39,326 bases of DNA from Bacteroidaceae bacterium (GTDB taxonomy: Bacteria > Bacteroidota > Bacteroidia > Bacteroidales > Bacteroidaceae). Shown here piece after piece: positions 7,199 through 14,513 of this stretch. Under the pieces are notes generated by a model. The model was not told where the DNA came from. It saw only the letters and a list, made by a program, of their open reading frames with translations, and made no database searches. The number at the start of each line of letters is the position of its first letter. Position 1 is the stretch's first letter. The stretch is taken from contig JAFXZY010000049.1 in the NCBI GenBank assembly GCA_017541025.1, positions 1 to 39,326 of the forward strand, written 5' to 3'. A program made the position numbers and the translations under genes.

Positions 7199-7510
7199 TT
7201 ATTTCTTGGATTGCTTTTTGTCGTATTTCTCCCATAGTTTCTTTTTCGCCGCTAACTCCTGCTGCCTAGCAGTACTCTCGCGAGCGGCTTTCTCTGCAGC
7301 TGCCTCGTCCTCGGAAGAGGCGTAAGCATGACGGAAGCCTTGTTGCTCGTTCCATCCTCCGCGAGTAAAATCAGGGAAAGAAACGGCAGCACATCCGTTG
7401 TCCATGCTCAAGGCACCAAGCTCTGCCAAGGCGCACCATTCCGCCAAGTCATAGACATCAATGTCAAGGGGCAGACCATTCTGCAAGCAATAGACAAGAC
7501 GGGCATCCAT
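7199..7510 (-). pseudogene. C-terminal remnant of a Gfo/Idh/MocA-family oxidoreductase
   Basis: The 103-codon ORF starts with MDARLVYCLQNGLPLD, then DVYDLAEWCALAELGALSMDN and FPDFTRGGWN. These match the last ~60 residues of secreted Bacteroidota Gfo/Idh/MocA dehydrogenases (NAD-dependent sugar oxidoreductases of 450-500 aa), ending in a Lys/Glu-rich helix. The nucleotide-binding domain and everything upstream are missing. A stop codon precedes the ATG in frame. A clean stretch in the neighbouring frame (about 7511-7596, ...ALSLGKESIISGYGV) leads into it and may be a frame-shifted part of the same or another lost gene. The remnant abuts the membrane micro-protein gene at 7582, whose last codons differ from those of its paralogue, as if a rearrangement joined the two. 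A functional small protein is unlikely but not excluded. Confidence 0.6.
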
Positions 7511-7581
7511 TTACACCATACCCTGAAATAATAGACTCTTTTCCTAAAGAAAGTGCGGCAGCACCTTTAATCCGAACTACG

Positions 7582-7770
7582 TCATGAATGGGAATTAGTT
7601 CCACTAAAGTTGCCGTACTTGTAGCGGAGGTACTCCATAATGAACCTCACAAGTAACAGATTCTTCCTCCGGATGATGCGTCGTTGCCAGAGGCATATTG
7701 CCCCCAGCACCACCACACCTGCAAGCAGGATAAAAATCAGCAAAGTGTTATCGACGCATGGAATAAGCAT
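7582..7770 (-). CDS. Single-span membrane micro-protein, copy 1 (62 aa)
   Basis: One membrane segment (residues ~9-27, LLIFILLAGVVVLGAICLW), then a basic segment QRRIIRRKN and a conserved aromatic helix FIMEYLRYKYGNF, presumably cytoplasmic by the positive-inside rule. It is 67 percent identical (39 of 58 positions) to a second copy at 9920-10096. Conservation of the protein plus matching upstream DNA argues that both are real genes. The last six residues (GTNSHS) differ from the other copy (AR), probably because of a junction with the broken oxidoreductase gene. Upstream lie a conserved promoter and the AGACAA array. No known family is recognised. It may be an effector, sensor partner or toxin-like peptide controlled by the neighbouring membrane AraC-type regulator (inference). 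Confidence 0.65.
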   Translation of the reverse strand: MLIPCVDNTLLIFILLAGVVVLGAICLWQRRIIRRKNLLLVRFIMEYLRYKYGNFSGTNSHS

Positions 7771-7890
7771 TCTCAGGTATTAATTTCCATTTCATTTAGG
7801 TTAGGTCGGAATTAAATTTTAGGCAAGATTCATTTAAAAGGCCAAATTTTTTTAGGTACTAATTTTAAGGAAAGATTCTTTTTTCGGTTA

Positions 7891-7921
7891 CAAAGTTGCG
7901 AATGTTTTTTCATACTTGCAA
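7891..7921 (-). promoter_or_regulatory. Activator-type promoter of membrane micro-protein 1
   Basis: On the minus strand TTG (7921-7919), a 20-bp spacer and CAACTTTG (7898-7891). The -7 box is one base off consensus (C for T), as expected for an activator-dependent promoter. The same boxes and spacing recur before copy 2. The AGACAA array begins 18 bp upstream of the -33 box. Confidence 0.6.
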
Positions 7922-7938
7922 TAGCCCGAAGCCCAAAA

Positions 7939-8030
7939 AGACAAGATTGAAAGGGTTTTAAGACAAGATTGAAAGTCGAAAGACAAAATCTAAAGTCTCT
8001 CAGACAAGATTGATAATCGGAAAAGACAAA
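7939..8030 (-). repeat. Phased AGACAA array 1
   Basis: AGACAA-type units start at 7939, 7961, 7981, 8002 and 8024 (spacings 22, 20, 21, 22), most with the longer form AGACAAGATTGAAAG. That is close to two helical turns per unit, so all copies face one side of the DNA. Read towards the gene the motif is CAATCTTGTCT. The likely role is a row of binding sites for the AraC-type regulator encoded next door. Confidence 0.7.
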
Positions 8031-8053
8031 AAAAATACCGCTGCGAGCAGCGG
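8027..8053 (-). terminator. Terminator of the AraC-type regulator gene
   Basis: CCGCTG-CTCG-CAGCGG forms a six-pair GC stem, followed on the minus strand by TATTTTTTTTG. The U-tract overlaps the last unit of array 1. Between it and the regulator stop there is a short heptad tract of AACTATG words (about 8066-8080). Confidence 0.85.
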
Positions 8054-8095
8054 TTTTAGGTTAAAACTATGAACTATGACCCTATAAATTTGATC

Positions 8096-9718
8096 TCATT
8101 CATCCACTGCAGACGTGTTACGGCGGAAGTCGGTGGGACTGAAGCCGAAGTGCTGACGGAAGCAGCTGCTGAAATAGGCACTGCTGCCGAAACCGCAGTC
8201 GGTAGCTATCTGCGTGATGCTGCACTCTGGGTCATCGGCTAGAAGTTGAGCTGCATAGTCCAAACGCAGCTGCTGGATATAGCTGGACAACTTGGCGTGT
8301 CCGCTACCCTTGGAGAAGATCGTACCCACACGCTCCTTGGACAGCTGGAAGCGGTCCATGATGGTCTGGCGTTCGAAGCTAGGGTCAAGATATAGGCGGT
8401 CTTGCACAACAATTTCGTGGATGCGCTGGAAGAGCTGCTCATCAGTAAGAGCATCCAGGTCGTCGGGGGCGGTGGCAGGCTTCTGTGTCTGCGCACGTTT
8501 CTCCTCCCAATATTTCTTCCCGTAGTTCACTTTTTCGGCAATCTGCTGTGCCAGGGCGCGATTCCTGCGCTTAATGCCCCTATTCTTGTGAATAACGATG
8601 ACAGTAAGGGTTGTCACACCCAACAGAACGCCTATCACACTAAAAAGGAGGTAGCGGTTGCGGGTGTTCACGGCCTCCTGCCGCATAATTATCTGATCCT
8701 GCTCCTTCTCACGATAGATGGCAGCCAGCTCCAGGGCCGTATTCTTAGCCCTACGACTCTTCAGTGTGTCCTGTATCTCCAGCACATCCTCATAGAGGTC
8801 GGCAGCCTGTTGGCAAAGACCCATCTTCCGATAGACCTCGGCCATACCCCATTTGACGGTATTCATCATCTCGCCCAACGTGTCACCCTGTTCGCGAACA
8901 CGCTGAATCAATTTATTATAGATAGAGAGAGCCTCCTGATTGTAACCACGTCTTTTCAAGTAGTCCACAATGAAATAGTCACGGGTGTGGTTACCCTCGT
9001 ACTGCACAGCCTTCCATGCAGCATATGCAGAGTCGGCACGTTGGAAATTTCCCATCTTGGCCAGTACTGCAGCCATCTTAGCCAATGCCATGCGACGGTC
9101 TATCAACTGCTGATTCGGAGCCGATCCCCAACGCGTACCTTCCATGGTCAGCTTTAGGTTACGTTCATCGGTCTTCAGCGCGTTCGCGTCGTCCTTCACC
9201 TCGCCATACAAGCGGGCCAGCATAATCAGACAACCATGCATCAGATGATCGGTATCATCGCGGTTGGTCTTCGCCATCAGACCAACAGCATCGCTTACGT
9301 ATTGGATACCCTGCTCACGGTCGCCCTCGTAGAAGACGTTCTGACCCATATCTATCAACGCCAAGGAGTGATAGTAGTCGTTGCCTGTCTGTGTAGCCAG
9401 GTCGAGCAACTGCTTCAGCCACTTGGCTTCTTCGGCCTTATGTCCCGCCAGCTCGCTGGTAGTGCAAAGTGCGTTCAGCACACTCAGTTTCTTCTCGTTG
9501 TCAGTCTCAGTCTCCCTGTTGTCCAACAGTTGCAGATACAGGTTGTAGGCATCGCGGAACTGCATACTGTTGTGAAGCGAGTCGGCCTTAGCCATGATCC
9601 GGTCGAAACCGGCTTGGTTTGAACCGTCTGTTGCCGAATCCTCCGTGTTACCGATACCAGTGCAGCCCGTCATAAGGGCTAGAAAGCTTACGTATATAAT
9701 AATGTGTGATATGCGCAT
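8096..9718 (-). CDS. Membrane-anchored TPR / AraC-type transcription regulator (540 aa)
   Basis: Layout: an N-terminal lipoprotein-like signal (MRISHIIIYVSFLALMTGC, possible lipid Cys at 19), a tetratricopeptide-like helical region (~residues 35-335, including ADSAYAAW and AADLYEDVLEI helices), one membrane span (~353-376, LLFSVIGVLLGVTTLTVIVI), a coiled linker, and an AraC/XylS-type DNA-binding domain (~435-536) with two helix-turn-helix segments (MDRFQLSKERVGTIF and ITQIATDCGFGSSAYFSSCFRQHFG, ending SPTDFRR). This puts the sensor outside and the DNA-binding part inside the inner membrane, so the protein would have to act at the membrane, as known for ToxR-like regulators. It is flanked on both sides by a promoter-array-micro-protein module, the best candidate targets. 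It has a -7 box upstream and a strong terminator. Confidence 0.9.
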   Translation of the reverse strand: MRISHIIIYVSFLALMTGCTGIGNTEDSATDGSNQAGFDRIMAKADSLHNSMQFRDAYNLYLQLLDNRETETDNEKKLSVLNALCTTSELAGHKAEEAKWLKQLLDLATQTGNDYYHSLALIDMGQNVFYEGDREQGIQYVSDAVGLMAKTNRDDTDHLMHGCLIMLARLYGEVKDDANALKTDERNLKLTMEGTRWGSAPNQQLIDRRMALAKMAAVLAKMGNFQRADSAYAAWKAVQYEGNHTRDYFIVDYLKRRGYNQEALSIYNKLIQRVREQGDTLGEMMNTVKWGMAEVYRKMGLCQQAADLYEDVLEIQDTLKSRRAKNTALELAAIYREKEQDQIIMRQEAVNTRNRYLLFSVIGVLLGVTTLTVIVIHKNRGIKRRNRALAQQIAEKVNYGKKYWEEKRAQTQKPATAPDDLDALTDEQLFQRIHEIVVQDRLYLDPSFERQTIMDRFQLSKERVGTIFSKGSGHAKLSSYIQQLRLDYAAQLLADDPECSITQIATDCGFGSSAYFSSCFRQHFGFSPTDFRRNTSAVDE

Positions 9719-9741
9719 ATAGTTCTACCTGTTTCTCTTTG

Positions 9742-9749
9742 CAAAAATA
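9742..9749 (-). promoter_or_regulatory. -7 box of the regulator gene
   Basis: The minus strand reads TATTTTTG, matching TAnnTTTG. No convincing -33 TTG is at the right distance. The predicted leader is about 20 nt. Confidence 0.5.
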
Positions 9750-9822
9750 CATATTTTTTAAAAAAGAACGTACCAAATTATAAATTTTAACATAATAAAT
9801 TCTGGTTTTTGGAGTTATCAAC

Positions 9823-9837
9823 AGCGGCCACGCCGCT
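9823..9837. other. Compact GC hairpin
   Basis: AGCGGC and GCCGCT pair around a three-base loop, upstream of the regulator promoter. Function unknown; it may help end transcripts arriving from the micro-protein gene. Confidence 0.45.
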
Positions 9838-9854
9838 TCAGAGCGACGGGGAAA

Positions 9855-9898
9855 CAAAAACGCCGAGCCGAAAATCGCTGAGGCGAGGATGATTTTCG
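9855..9898 (-). terminator. Probable terminator of membrane micro-protein 2
   Basis: CGAAAATC and GATTTTCG pair (9898-9891 with 9876-9869 on the minus strand), followed by GGCTCGGCG and a T-run. It starts about 22 bases after the stop of copy 2. Confidence 0.5.
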
Positions 9899-9919
9899 AG
9901 CGTTAGCTCAAAGATCGAT

Positions 9920-10096
9920 TTAGCGGGCACTAAAGCCGCCGTACTTGTAGCGAAGGTTCTCCATAATAAACTTCACCAGCAACCGATTCTTCCTGCGGAT
10001 GATATGTCTCTGCCAGAGGCAAAGGCCCCCGAGGACTATCACCCCGACAAGCAGGGCGGAGATTATCAGATCGGTATCGTCGCAGGAAATAAACAT
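9920..10096 (-). CDS. Single-span membrane micro-protein, copy 2 (58 aa)
   Basis: A complete 58-codon ORF: MFISCDDTDL, one membrane span (residues ~10-28), then QRHIIRRKNRLLVKFIMENLRY and the end KYGGFSAR. It is the paralogue of the 62-aa protein at 7582-7770. The strictest conservation is in the segment just after the membrane (LCLWQR, IIRRKN, LLV, FIME, LRYKYG). Its ~115-nt leader, promoter and array also match those of copy 1, so the whole module of about 410 bp has been duplicated around the regulator gene. The end AR is probably the ancestral one. No known family; function unknown. Confidence 0.65.
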   Translation of the reverse strand: MFISCDDTDLIISALLVGVIVLGGLCLWQRHIIRRKNRLLVKFIMENLRYKYGGFSAR

Positions 10097-10211
10097 TTTC
10101 GCACTTGAATTAATTTCATTAGGTTGGTTGGTACTGATTTTATAGGTGAGAATTCATTTTCATTAAGCCTTTTGGCTGTGATTTTTATTAGGCAAACCTT
10201 TTTTTTGTTTA

Positions 10212-10242
10212 CAAAGTTGCGAACGATTTTTCATTCTTGCAA
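10212..10242 (-). promoter_or_regulatory. Activator-type promoter of membrane micro-protein 2
   Basis: TTG (10242-10240), a 20-bp spacer and CAACTTTG (10219-10212) on the minus strand, the same as before copy 1. The array again begins 18 bp further upstream. Confidence 0.6.
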
Positions 10243-10259
10243 TAGCCAGAGGCCCCTAA

Positions 10260-10340
10260 AGACAAGATTGAAAGGGTTTAAAGACAAGATTTATACTCGA
10301 AAGACAAAATCTAAAGTCTCTCAGACAAAATCTTAAGTCG
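10260..10340 (-). repeat. Phased AGACAA array 2
   Basis: AGACAA units start at 10260, 10282, 10302 and 10323 (spacings 22, 20, 21), the same pattern as array 1 without its last unit. The unit cores are more conserved than the DNA between them: unit 2 keeps AGACAAGATT while its flank differs from array 1. Confidence 0.7.
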
Positions 10341-10510
10341 TTTTTTGGGGTTTACTACAGAATAAACAAGAAATAAAAATAAAGTTTAACCGCATCAGCC
10401 TACTCTACAAATAAGACTTAAAGTACTTAACGAGTAATACAAATAAGCTCCTAAGCCAACATATAAAATCGTTAAACTACAGAAAAAAGTGTAATACGGA
10501 TAAAAGAACT
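10341..10510. other. AT-rich non-coding stretch
   Basis: No gene is seen. TACAAATAAG occurs twice (10406 and 10438) and ACTACAGAA-type words occur near 10353 and 10485, without a clear period. Confidence 0.4.
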
Positions 10511-10600
10511 ATTTTCAAGGCTTGATAATATATTTTCAAGGCTTGGTTATTTATTTTCAAGGCTTGGTTATAAATTTTCAAGCCTTGAAAATAAATTTTC
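10511..10600. repeat. Exactly 21-bp-spaced CAAGGCTTG array
   Basis: Four copies of TTTTCAAGGCTTG (the fourth as CAAGCCTTGAAAA), with the C of CAAG at 10516, 10537, 10558 and 10579, a constant 21 bp apart. Each core is a near-palindrome, as expected for a dimeric DNA-binding protein, and all copies fall on the same face of the helix. The array lies between the micro-protein module and the purL promoter, about 110 bp upstream of the latter. Confidence 0.75.
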
Positions 10601-10708
10601 CACGGCTATTAGCATATTATATCATTGGCATCAGAATGTTTTCCGGGGGTTTATACCGGTAATTATGTTAATACAGAAAATTTTATTCAAACATAGTGGG
10701 TGAACCCG

Positions 10709-10739
10709 TTGGTTACCTCATTATTTTTTTGTACCTTTG
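10709..10739 (+). promoter_or_regulatory. Promoter of purL
   Basis: TTG (10709-10711), a 20-bp spacer and TACCTTTG (10732-10739). The leader is about 25 nt, too short for a purine riboswitch, and none is seen. Confidence 0.75.
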
Positions 10740-10769
10740 TCGCAAAAATAAAAAAACGTATTTGAAGAG

Positions 10770-13700
10770 ATGGCAATTACATTCTTTAAGACACCACAGG
10801 AGAGCATCATCGCTACTGCCTGTGACCACAAATTCACAAGCGAAGATATAGAAAAACTTTGCTGGCTCTACGACGGAGCTACCGTACTTGACGGAGAGAC
10901 CCTGAGCGGATTCTTCATCGGTCCACGTAGGGAGATGATTACTCCCTGGAGCACCAATGCCGTTGAAATTACCCAGAATATGGCAGTCAAGGGCATCAGC
11001 CGTATCGAGGAATACTATCCCGTAGCCGACGAGAAAGCTGAATACGACCCTATGCTGCAACGCATGTACAAGGGCCTCGACCAGGAGATCTTTACCATCA
11101 ACATGAAGCCTGCTGCCATCCAGCACATCGAGAACCTGGAGGAGTACAACGAGCAGGAGGGTCTGGCACTCTCGCCAGAAGAGATTGAGTACCTGCACGA
11201 TGTGGAGAAGCAGTTGGGCCGCAAACTGACAGACAGCGAGGTGTTCGGCTTCGCACAGATCAACAGTGAGCATTGCCGCCACAAGATTTTCGGCGGCACC
11301 TTCATCATCGACGGCGAAGAGAAGGAGAGTAGCCTCTTTAAGATGATCAAGAAGACTACGCAGGAGAATCCCCATAAGATAATCTCTGCCTATAAAGATA
11401 ATGTAGCATTTGCACAGGGTCCCGTTGTGGAGCAGTTTGCCCCACAGGACCACAGCACAAGCGACTATTTCGTTATCCGCGACATAGAGAGTGTTATCAG
11501 CATCAAGGCTGAGACACATAACTTCCCCACAACGGTTGAACCCTTCAACGGTGCCTCTACGGGTACCGGCGGCGAGATTCGCGACCGTATGGGCGGTGGT
11601 GTAGGTTCCTGGCCTATTGCCGGTACTGCCGTATATATGACCAGCTACCCCCGCACTCAGGAGGAACGTGACTGGGAGAAGATTCTGCCCGTTCGCGAAT
11701 GGCTGTACCAGACACCCGAGCAGATTCTTATCAAGGCTTCCAACGGTGCTAGCGATTTCGGCAACAAGTTCGGCCAGCCTCTGATCTGCGGATCTGTGCT
11801 GACTTTCGAGCATCAGGAAAAGGACGAGAAATACGCCTACGACAAGGTTATCATGCTGGCCGGCGGTGTGGGTTACGGTACCAAGCGCGACTGCCTGAAG
11901 GGTACTCCCCAGAAGGGTAACAAGGTGGTTGTCGTAGGTGGTGACAACTACCGCATCGGTCTGGGCGGCGGCTCTGTATCATCTGTTGAGACAGGCCGTT
12001 ACAGCAGCGGCATCGAGCTGAATGCCGTTCAGCGTGCCAATCCTGAGATGCAGAAACGTGCCTACAACCTTATCCGCTCCCTTTGCGAGGAGAAAGTAAA
12101 TCCCGTTGTCAGCATCCACGACCACGGAAGTGCCGGACACGTAAACTGCCTGTCGGAGTTGGTTGAGGAATGCGGCGGCCATATTGATATGACCAAACTG
12201 CCCATTGGCGACCCCACCCTATCGGCAAAGGAAATTATTGCCAACGAGAGTCAGGAGCGTATGGGACTGCTTATCGACGAGAAGCACATCGACCATGTAC
12301 GTCAGATTGCCGAGCGTGAACGCGCTCCGCTGTATGTAGTGGGTGAGACCACAGGCGATGCACACTTCAGCTTCGAGCAGGGCGACGGTGTCCGTCCCTT
12401 CGACCTGGAGGTAAGCCAGATGTTCGGTCACTCTCCCAAGACCATCATGCGCGACAATACCGTTGAACGTAAATACGAGAATGTAGAGTATGACAACTCT
12501 AAACTCTCAACTCTAAACTCTCAACTTGAAAAGGTTCTGCAGCTGGAGGCTGTTGCCTGCAAGGACTGGCTAACCAACAAGGTGGACCGCTCCGTAACAG
12601 GTAAGGTAGCACGCCAGCAGTGCCAGGGCGAGTTGCAGTTGCCGCTGAGCGACTGCGGTGTGGTTGCCCTCGACTATCGTGGTGAAAAGGGTATCGCCAC
12701 TGCTTTGGGTCACGCACCTCAGGCAGCCTTGGCAGACCCCGCAGCAGGTTCCGTACTCTCTGTTGCCGAGTCTCTGACAAATATTGTATGGGCTCCCCTG
12801 GAGGAAGGGCTGGACAGCGTAAGCCTGAGTGCCAACTGGATGTGGCCCTGCCGTGCCCAGGAGGGTGAGGATGCCCGTCTTTATACTGCCGTCAAGGCTC
12901 TCTCCGACTTCTGCTGCGAGTTGCAGATTAACGTTCCCACAGGTAAGGACTCGCTGAGTATGACACAGAAGTACCCCAACGGCGAGAAGATTATCTCTCC
13001 GGGTACCGTCATCGTAACCAGCGGCGGACAGGTAAGCGACATCAAGAAGGTTGTTTCTCCTGTTGTTCAGAACGTACCTTCTACACTTTACCATATCGAC
13101 TTCTCTTTCGATGAGCTCCGTCTGGGCGGTTCTGCCTTTGCTCAGGTTCACAACAAGGTAGGCAGCGATGTTCCTACCGTTAAGAACAGCGAGTATTTCC
13201 GCGATTGCTTCAATGCCATCCAGACCCTGATTCAGAAGGGCCTCATTCTGGCTGGTCACGACATCAGCGCCGGTGGTCTTATCACTACCCTGCTGGAGAT
13301 GACCTTCGCCAACACCAAGGGCGGTTTGAACATCAACTTAGACAAGATAAAGACCAACGACCTGACAAAGATTCTCTTTGCAGAGAACCCCGGTGTTGTT
13401 ATCCAGGTTGCTAACAGCAAGCGTAGCGAGGTGAAGAAGTTCCTGGAGGACGAGGGCGTTGGCTACATTAATATAGGTGAACCTGCAGAGGGTCGTACCC
13501 TTACCATCGAGAAGAACGGTCAGACCTTCAACTTCGACATCGATGCCCTGCGTGACATCTGGTACAAGAGCAGCTTCCTGCTGGATCAGAAGCAGAGTTT
13601 CCACGGCAAGGCTGCCGAGCGTTACCAGAACTACAAGCAGCAGCCAATCGAATGGAAAATCCTGCCCGGATTCACCGGTAAACTCAGCCAGTACGGCCTC

Positions 13701-14513
13701 AACCCTGACCGTTGGAAAGATAATGGTCAAGACTCAATGGTCAATGGTCAATCCCCCAAGGCTGCCATCATCCGCGAGAAAGGTACAAACGGAGAACGCG
13801 AGATGGCTTACATGCTTTACTTGGCAGGCTTCGATGTAAAGGATGTGATGATGACCGACCTTATCACAGGTCGCGAGACACTGGACGACATCAACTTCAT
13901 CGTCTTCTGCGGCGGATTCTCCAACAGCGACGTACTGGGAAGTGCCAAGGGATGGGCAGGTGCCTTCCTTTACAACCCCAAGGCCAAGGAAGCCCTCGAC
14001 CGTTTCTATGCCCGCAAGGACACACTTTCACTGGGTGTCTGCAATGGTTGCCAGCTGATGGTGGAGTTGGGATTAATAGGGGGAGAAATGGTAAATGGCA
14101 AATCCCCCAAGATGTTGCACAACGACAGCCACAAGTTCGAGTCGAACTTCCTTGGTCTGACCGTTCAGCCCAACAAGAGCGTGCTGATGGGAAGCCTCAG
14201 CGGAAGCAAGTTAGGTATCTGGGTGGCTCACGGAGAAGGCAAGTTCTCTCTCCCTGGCAAGGAGGAAGATTACAACATCGTACTGAAATACAGTTACGAC
14301 GGTTATCCTGCCAACCCCAACGGTAGCGACTTCTCTGCTGCCGGTATCTGCAGCGCCGACGGTCGCCATCTGGCTATGATGCCTCACCTGGAGCGTGCCT
14401 TCTTCCCCTGGCAGTGCGGCTACTATCCTGCTGACCGCAAGGAGCAGGATCAGGTGACACCCTGGATTGAAGCATTCATAAACGCAAGGGAATGGATAAA
14501 AAATAATGTTTGA
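10770..14513 (+). CDS. purL: Phosphoribosylformylglycinamidine synthase, long form (1247 aa)
   Basis: Catalyses the fourth step of purine synthesis, FGAR + glutamine + ATP to FGAM, in the cytoplasm. The single long chain holds an N-terminal domain (1-~150), a first AIRS-type half with the EHCRHKIF motif near residue 170 and AETHNFPTTVEPF near 250, a second AIRS-type half (~600-950, including GKDSLSM and GHDISAGGL), and a C-terminal glutamine amidotransferase with nucleophile C1091 in GVCNGCQ and the late HGEGKF motif. Long-form PurL is usual in Bacteroidota. Three in-frame 7-bp repeat tracts sit in poorly conserved loops: residues ~576-586, ~985-996 and ~1106-1113. The last bases overlap the downstream transporter gene by 8. 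Own promoter upstream; the 21-bp array further upstream may add control. Confidence 0.97.
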   Translation: MAITFFKTPQESIIATACDHKFTSEDIEKLCWLYDGATVLDGETLSGFFIGPRREMITPWSTNAVEITQNMAVKGISRIEEYYPVADEKAEYDPMLQRMYKGLDQEIFTINMKPAAIQHIENLEEYNEQEGLALSPEEIEYLHDVEKQLGRKLTDSEVFGFAQINSEHCRHKIFGGTFIIDGEEKESSLFKMIKKTTQENPHKIISAYKDNVAFAQGPVVEQFAPQDHSTSDYFVIRDIESVISIKAETHNFPTTVEPFNGASTGTGGEIRDRMGGGVGSWPIAGTAVYMTSYPRTQEERDWEKILPVREWLYQTPEQILIKASNGASDFGNKFGQPLICGSVLTFEHQEKDEKYAYDKVIMLAGGVGYGTKRDCLKGTPQKGNKVVVVGGDNYRIGLGGGSVSSVETGRYSSGIELNAVQRANPEMQKRAYNLIRSLCEEKVNPVVSIHDHGSAGHVNCLSELVEECGGHIDMTKLPIGDPTLSAKEIIANESQERMGLLIDEKHIDHVRQIAERERAPLYVVGETTGDAHFSFEQGDGVRPFDLEVSQMFGHSPKTIMRDNTVERKYENVEYDNSKLSTLNSQLEKVLQLEAVACKDWLTNKVDRSVTGKVARQQCQGELQLPLSDCGVVALDYRGEKGIATALGHAPQAALADPAAGSVLSVAESLTNIVWAPLEEGLDSVSLSANWMWPCRAQEGEDARLYTAVKALSDFCCELQINVPTGKDSLSMTQKYPNGEKIISPGTVIVTSGGQVSDIKKVVSPVVQNVPSTLYHIDFSFDELRLGGSAFAQVHNKVGSDVPTVKNSEYFRDCFNAIQTLIQKGLILAGHDISAGGLITTLLEMTFANTKGGLNINLDKIKTNDLTKILFAENPGVVIQVANSKRSEVKKFLEDEGVGYINIGEPAEGRTLTIEKNGQTFNFDIDALRDIWYKSSFLLDQKQSFHGKAAERYQNYKQQPIEWKILPGFTGKLSQYGLNPDRWKDNGQDSMVNGQSPKAAIIREKGTNGEREMAYMLYLAGFDVKDVMMTDLITGRETLDDINFIVFCGGFSNSDVLGSAKGWAGAFLYNPKAKEALDRFYARKDTLSLGVCNGCQLMVELGLIGGEMVNGKSPKMLHNDSHKFESNFLGLTVQPNKSVLMGSLSGSKLGIWVAHGEGKFSLPGKEEDYNIVLKYSYDGYPANPNGSDFSAAGICSADGRHLAMMPHLERAFFPWQCGYYPADRKEQDQVTPWIEAFINAREWIKNNV
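12495..12525 (+). repeat. Heptad tract inside purL (1)
   Basis: AACTCTA and AACTCTC alternate twice, then AACTTGA. It encodes the SKLSTLNSQ segment between the two synthase halves. Confidence 0.85.
13722..13756 (+). repeat. Heptad tract inside purL (2)
   Basis: AATGGTC, AAGACTC, AATGGTC, AATGGTC, AATCCCC. It encodes NGQDSMVNGQSP just before the amidotransferase domain. Confidence 0.85.
14086..14106 (+). repeat. Heptad tract inside purL (3)
   Basis: AAATGGT, AAATGGC, AAATCCC: exactly 21 bases, three heptads and seven codons. It encodes the MVNGKSP segment in the amidotransferase domain and ends in the same AATCCCCCAAG as tract 2. Confidence 0.75.

What the first reader, a model, noticed from the sequence alone, without database searches (positions are those of the whole stretch)
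7582..10340. Candidate new signalling unit: membrane AraC-type regulator flanked by two duplicated array-promoter-micro-protein modules
Both sides of the regulator carry the same ~410-bp unit: AGACAA sites with spacings 22-20-21, then 18 bp, then TTG-20 bp-CAACTTTG, a ~115-nt leader, and a 58-62-aa single-span protein (67 percent identical). The weak -7 box and upstream phased sites are what an AraC-family activator needs. The regulator has an outside TPR sensor and an inside DNA-binding domain, so sensing, DNA target and a membrane product are all in one island. I know of no described system with this layout.
Basis: partly seen in the sequence, partly recalled or inferred. Interest (0 to 1): 0.85.

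Follow-up and report, generated by a model that had tools for sequence, protein, structure and literature searches.

The report
Membrane regulator with look-alike micro-protein
A bacterial genome related to rumen Bacteroidaceae carries a membrane-spanning gene switch that sits beside its probable DNA landing sites and beside tiny membrane proteins that resemble the switch's own membrane segment, which suggests a built-in feedback circuit; similar arrangements occur in related bacteria, often next to genes for secreted or surface proteins.

Summary
Two copies of a unit (4-5 TTGTCT sites, Bacteroidetes-type promoter, 58-62-aa single-span protein) flank a TPR-TM-AraC gene. The layout recurs in relatives. 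GTCY arrays follow 21 of 41 related regulators but 2 of 98 control genes, both of these being arrays of this same genome. Array sequence tracks HTH similarity at 24 loci (Mantel r 0.51, 0 of 5000 permutations). Of 22 stand-alone micro-protein loci, 15 adjoin such a regulator, 2 lie in a regulator's gene cluster, 2 show none, 3 are cut by contig ends. New here: the micro-protein resembles the regulators' own transmembrane-juxtamembrane segment (AUC 0.98-0.998 against 69 other TM segments). Best reading: a one-component membrane regulator that activates array promoters and is fed back on by a micro-protein copying its membrane segment, working like MgrB on PhoQ without being its relative. DNA binding, activation and the micro-protein's action are inferred, not shown. 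Roughly 21-bp arrays of any sequence follow 12 of 98 control genes, so period alone proves nothing.

The parts
8096..9718 (-). Regulator, 540 aa: lipobox-like signal (LMTGC), TPR region (predicted periplasmic), one TM helix, KN-type juxtamembrane segment, C-terminal HTH_18/AraC domain
   Evidence: Pfam HTH_18 1e-16, TPR_12 1e-7; 70% identical to the protein in L022; alignment A2; a loose lipobox pattern matches 27 of 41 relatives, a few of them doubtful
7582..7770 (-). Micro-protein 1, 62 aa, single TM then IIRRKN juxtamembrane segment
9920..10096 (-). Micro-protein 2, 58 aa, same family
7939..8029 (-). Array 1: five TTGTCT sites, spacings 22-20-21-22 counted away from the promoter
10260..10328 (-). 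Array 2: four TTGTCT sites, spacings 22-20-21
7891..7921 (-). Promoter of micro-protein 1: TTG, 20 bp, CAACTTTG (Bacteroidetes -33/-7 type; consensus TAnnTTTG recalled)
   Evidence: read; 17 bp from array 1
10212..10242 (-). Promoter of micro-protein 2: TTG, 20 bp, CAACTTTG
   Evidence: read; 17 bp from array 2
8037..8054 (-). Terminator-like hairpin between regulator and array 1
9742..9749 (-). Possible -7 box (TATTTTTG) of the regulator's own promoter; no clear -33 box and no array seen
   Evidence: read; inference

Best explanation
A one-component membrane signalling circuit. The regulator is held in the inner membrane with its TPR region outside and its AraC-type domain in the cytoplasm. 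On an unknown envelope signal, two or more molecules bind the row of about 21-bp direct repeats and activate the adjoining promoter. The first product is a micro-protein that looks like a free-standing copy of the regulator's own transmembrane and juxtamembrane segment. It most likely pairs with the regulator in the membrane and damps it, giving negative feedback. In relatives the same promoter often also stands before a secreted or surface protein. Seen in sequence: layout, recurrence, array-HTH covariation, operators at matching places in two species, likeness of micro-protein and regulator segment, low dN/dS. Inferred: topology, binding, activation, pairing, and the sign of the feedback.
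For: GTCY arrays after 21 of 41 regulators versus 2 of 98 control genes; 19 of 32 if the 9 regulators that entered only through micro-protein profiles are left out. Repeat sequence tracks HTH identity at 24 loci with hand-picked repeat units, Mantel r 0.51, 0 of 5000. In 10 of the 15 rows with three or more consecutive sites the spacing at the promoter end is 22 then 20 bp (recounted). The window's genome (84% complete) has one strong regulator of this type and further operator copies at C63 and C80; G318 has operators at matching places. Both micro-protein profiles rank regulator TM segments above 69 other TM segments, AUC 0.998 and 0.983 for all 40, 0.998 and 0.979 for 26 left after dropping regulators that the profiles themselves had found (one search had 70 background segments, one of them a regulator). 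Outside the own genome 9 of 14 hits of the window-type profile in 301 genomes lie in membrane AraC proteins. Precedent: MgrB, a PhoP-regulated membrane peptide that lowers PhoP-regulated transcription and appears to contact PhoQ (PMC2789325, abstract).
Against: No binding, expression or interaction data. Cognate pairing is weak: mean rank 13.2 of 40 against 20.5 expected, p 0.011 assuming independent rows, which they are not fully; a first run with one mis-anchored row gave 15.2. 28 of 41 regulators show no recognised micro-protein within about 0.8 kb and 20 of 41 no GTCY array. In G010 and G467 the micro-protein frame runs on into the next secreted protein, which hints at a link with cargo. 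One window-type relative (G360) has neither array nor regulator. Covariation of array and HTH could partly reflect joint descent of neighbouring DNA. The GTCY motif was defined on the loci it was counted in.
Confidence: 0.5

Rival explanations
1. The micro-protein serves the co-transcribed secreted or surface protein (export, anchoring or folding) rather than the regulator; its likeness to the regulator segment is old descent without present contact.
For: At 16 of 22 micro-protein loci the next gene has a signal-peptide-like start or is continuous with the micro-protein frame (judged by eye); in G010 and G467 the frames are continuous.
Against: In the window no such gene follows micro-protein 1, and micro-protein 2 is followed by the regulator, yet both are kept with low dN/dS. 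The in-register likeness to the regulator is left unexplained.
Confidence: 0.25
2. The micro-protein is a positive co-component that stabilises or helps dimerise the regulator, as ToxS does for ToxR.
For: Adjacency and recurrence; co-component precedent (PMC9214523, passages).
Against: It lies under the array promoter, behind a terminator-like hairpin, and has only about nine residues outside to sense with.
Confidence: 0.15
3. The arrays are ordinary intergenic repeats and the small frame is a leader ORF; the circuit is an accident of layout.
For: Rows of about 21-bp repeats of any sequence follow 12 of 98 control genes (two of the 12 are one C63 array of this genome seen from both sides).
Against: GTCY arrays follow only 2 of 98 controls, both on C63 of this genome; covariation with HTH; dN/dS 0.2-0.3.
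Confidence: 0.07

Closest known systems
MgrB-PhoQ/PhoP feedback (PMC2789325; abstract and section list seen)
   Same: Small single-span membrane protein made from a target promoter of the sensor; here too it is proposed to act on the sensor in the membrane
   Different: Here the sensor is a one-component AraC-type protein, and the small protein resembles the sensor's own TM segment
Co-component systems ToxR/ToxS, VtrA/VtrC (PMC9214523; passages seen)
   Same: Membrane-bound transcription factor with a membrane partner encoded next door
   Different: The partner there has a periplasmic sensor domain; here it has only a few outside residues. The DNA-binding domain is N-terminal there, C-terminal and AraC-type here
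Bacteroides hybrid two-component systems (PMC3878776 and PMC11253607; passages seen)
   Same: Membrane sensor ending in an AraC-type domain; predicted operators are direct repeats with an average distance of 21 bp
   Different: No kinase or receiver found here; rows of two to six sites instead of two; associated micro-protein
Eukaryotic microProteins (truncated, dominant-negative relatives of transcription factors; recalled)
   Same: Small protein resembling a possible partner-contact part of a regulator
   Different: Bacterial, membrane-embedded, no dominant-negative effect shown

Membership tests
AraC/XylS DNA-binding family | C-terminal double-HTH domain above family cut-off | tested here: met
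   HTH_18 61.4 bits against cut-off 33.6; HTH_AraC 40.1 against 26.6
Hybrid two-component system | Histidine kinase and receiver domains in the same protein | tested here: not met
   No such Pfam domain at E up to 1
Hybrid two-component system | Operator of about 21-bp direct repeats | tested here: met
   Repeats with spacings 20-22 beside the gene; binding not shown
Co-component system (ToxR/ToxS type) | Partner with periplasmic sensor domain | tested here: not met
   Micro-proteins have about nine residues before the hydrophobic stretch
MgrB-type feedback peptide | Small membrane protein encoded under a target promoter of the sensor | tested here: inconclusive
   Layout and array-HTH covariation fit; transcription not measured
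MgrB-type feedback peptide | Inhibits the sensor by direct contact | not testable with these tools
   Needs bench work
microProtein (truncated relative of its target) | Likeness to a segment of the target regulator | tested here: met
   AUC 0.979-0.998 for regulator TM segments; in-register match only at offset 0, to which the anchor motif itself adds. The segment is short, so common descent is likely but not proved
microProtein (truncated relative of its target) | Dominant-negative effect | not testable with these tools
   Needs bench work

The most novel reading that the evidence does not exclude
A bacterial microProtein system working inside the membrane: a family of one-component AraC-type receptors, each feeding back on itself through a micro-protein that copies its own transmembrane-juxtamembrane segment, packaged as a cassette (receptor, row of operators, micro-protein, often a secreted or surface protein) that has diversified across this bacterial family.
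Probability: 0.35. Interest if true: 0.9.

Novelty: new variant of a known kind. Interest (0 to 1): 0.74.

Why it matters
It would give candidate target sites and a regulatory partner for a class of membrane transcription factors for which my literature searches found no description, and tie that class to secreted and surface proteins in many of the loci. A micro-protein that copies its regulator's membrane segment would be a simple, testable form of feedback inside the membrane.

Tried and rejected
Period alone as proof: rejected, because about 21-bp rows follow 12 of 98 control genes. Of the 25 of 41 regulators that pass that test, about ten pass through a row that is not of GTC type (L024, L026, L032, L034, L042, L044, L053, L069, L101, L102), some of these besides a GTC-type row. 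Rfam in 7400-10800: no match at gathering thresholds. Sigma-70 scan: not informative for this phylum. Known small-protein families: no hit above a curated cut-off for the window micro-proteins (Pfam, NCBIfam) or for three divergent ones (NCBIfam). Five secreted proteins downstream: a family hit in 1 of 5, a repeat family. Structure of regulator or complex: tool switched off. Cognate pairing by sequence: only weak. Solved structures at E 0.001: 16 sequences, all matching within the C-terminal part that holds the AraC domain. A first script with too strict a filter found no regulators and was redone. Literature: no description of this layout seen in the listings of searches (open-licence PMC only, several with zero results); four papers were opened in part.

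Rows left out: L022 as a copy of L039 and L048 as a copy of L097 in the 41-locus tests; other duplicates were skipped in the script (L012, L013, L014, L023, L025, L049, L050, L062, L064, L067). L042 (stop inside) stayed in the array tests as its open-frame fragment and was left out of alignment A2. Not counted as stand-alone micro-proteins: hits inside full-length regulators (for example L081, L083, L087, L096, L104), hits in other genes or frames with stops (L029, L030, L031, L033, L036, L080, L086), and weaker small frames beside regulators in L104, L110 and L115.
Full report
What is there. On the minus strand of the window lie micro-protein 2 (9920-10096), the regulator (8096-9718) and micro-protein 1 (7582-7770). 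Each micro-protein is preceded by a promoter of Bacteroidetes type and by a row of TTGTCT sites. The array-promoter blocks are 89% identical, the coding parts 76%. The paired pattern gives 3 matches against a mean of 0.10 in shuffles. dN/dS of the micro-proteins is about 0.2-0.3 on 55 codons.

The regulator. It carries TPR_12 and HTH_18, a lipobox-like signal, one predicted transmembrane helix and a C-terminal AraC domain. The window's genome (84% complete) has one strong hit of this type; the next scores 6e-14.

Recurrence of arrays. Regulator relatives came from the genus (11 of 139 genomes at E 1e-40) and the family (18 of 399 at E 1e-60, with only 3 candidates scored per genome); 9 of the 41 distinct loci entered only through micro-protein profiles (L024, L026, L027, L032, L035, L101-L104). 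Of 41 loci, 25 have a 20-23-bp direct-repeat row within 500 bases downstream, against 12 of 98 control genes (Fisher 1.3e-8). Restricted to GTCY cores the figures are 21 of 41 and 2 of 98, both control hits being C63 arrays of this genome; without the 9 loci, 19 of 32. The motif was defined on the same loci. Across 24 loci with hand-picked units the repeat sequence follows HTH identity (Mantel r 0.51, 0 of 5000); the 5-prime half carries this (r 0.60), while the core half is shared by nearly all (r 0.15, 313 of 5000). In 10 of 15 rows with three or more consecutive sites, the spacing at the promoter end is 22 then 20 bp (recounted). In the window and G318 the last site lies 17 bp from the TTG, in L042, L044, L046 and L047 6 bp, a difference of about one helix turn (read).

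Other targets. Further operators exist at C63 (two) and C80. At the first C63 place a STAS-domain gene (Pfam), a gene with a below-cut-off match to Alginate_exp, and a gene that I read by eye as a family 3 glycosidase follow. G318 has an operator before the same three genes, and a six-site row flanked by the small gene that precedes the C80 operator here and by the putA-like gene that follows the second C63 operator here (putA by eye). In G417 a row precedes a gene that reads like a radical SAM protein (by eye). So the regulon seems wider than the island.

The micro-protein. Profiles of the window type (A1) and a divergent type (A3) found 22 stand-alone loci. Fifteen have a regulator next to them: both window copies, G318, G083, G010, G233 twice, G487, G467 (one gene between), G199, G310 three times, G384, G315; the regulators of G487 and of one G233 locus are short (266 and 273 aa). 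Two more (G110) lie 10 and 21 kb from a co-oriented regulator on one contig. G360 and G316 show none. G438, G171 and G320 are cut by contig ends. A row of repeats stands upstream of 19 of the 20 that have upstream sequence, some with two sites and judged by eye; G360 is the exception. Seen from the regulators, 13 of 41 have such a micro-protein downstream, 10 of 32 without the 9 profile-found loci. At 16 of 22 loci the next gene begins like a secreted or lipoprotein gene or is continuous with the micro-protein frame; at the window copies, G360 and G320 I count none (though the regulator that follows micro-protein 2 has a lipobox-like start itself), in G318 the contig ends about 0.5 kb on, and G171 was not looked at (by eye).

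Likeness to the regulator. In 301 family genomes, outside the own genome, 9 of 14 hits of the window-type profile at E 0.01 lie in membrane AraC proteins, 7 of TPR length and 2 without TPR; 5 lie elsewhere. In a direct test both profiles put regulator TM segments above other TM segments: AUC 0.99 and 0.98 with 70 background segments, 0.998 and 0.983 once a regulator that had slipped into the background was removed, and 0.998 and 0.979 on the 26 of 40 regulators left after dropping those that the profiles had themselves picked up. TPR-TM histidine kinases were not tested apart. Micro-proteins and regulators share a KN motif at the same distance from the helix and match only in register. One neighbour gene (L034) encodes TM plus HTH without TPR, a possible intermediate. 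Pairing of each micro-protein with its own regulator is only weakly better than with others (p 0.011).

Mechanism. AraC binds direct repeats 21 bp apart (I1-I2, recalled), and Bacteroides HTCS operators are predicted direct repeats averaging 21 bp (PMC3878776, passages). The rows here are thus natural operators. As the array lies just upstream of the promoter, activation is likely. A product resembling the regulator's membrane segment suggests pairing in the membrane. Negative feedback is the simplest outcome, by analogy with MgrB (PMC2789325, abstract), but a stabilising role as in ToxR/ToxS (PMC9214523, passages) or a role in handling the secreted protein cannot be excluded. The continuous frames in G010 and G467 speak for the last.

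Novelty. Each component is of a known kind; the combination did not appear in nine literature searches, which cover open-licence papers only.

Noticed in passing
window 10510-10614 (+): Another 21-bp array (TTTTCAAGGCTTGGTTAT type) upstream of the long ORF at 10770-14513 that I read as purL; a similar AAGGCTTGGAAT row follows a different membrane AraC gene in L069.
   Followed up: partly
L118 near 18818; L122; L119: Rows of about 22-bp direct repeats, mostly of unrelated sequence, follow 12 of 98 control genes, six copies of TTGCACCTTAGG in L118.
   Followed up: partly
L056, L059 downstream of the regulators: A second kind of small protein with a C-terminal hydrophobic stretch and a FIYRHxRL motif (by eye).
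   Followed up: no
L105-L106 (G110:C25): A roughly 30-kb co-oriented island: regulator, then very large proteins, two of them preceded by array plus micro-protein.
   Followed up: partly
L125 7231-7578 (G360): Window-type micro-protein continued by a tail with CPKC and CQHC pairs, zinc-ribbon-like by eye, with no array or regulator nearby.
   Followed up: yes
window 7199-7510 (-): 103-aa frame after micro-protein 1 that looks, from memory, like the C-terminal remnant of a Gfo/Idh oxidoreductase; no Pfam match.
   Followed up: no
L010 before 262 and start of L172: The same tiny lipoprotein-like gene end (TTSCMRGL) directly before the operator in two species.
   Followed up: no
L042, L051, L053, L054: Regulator relatives whose match contains a stop codon, possibly decaying copies.
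   Followed up: no
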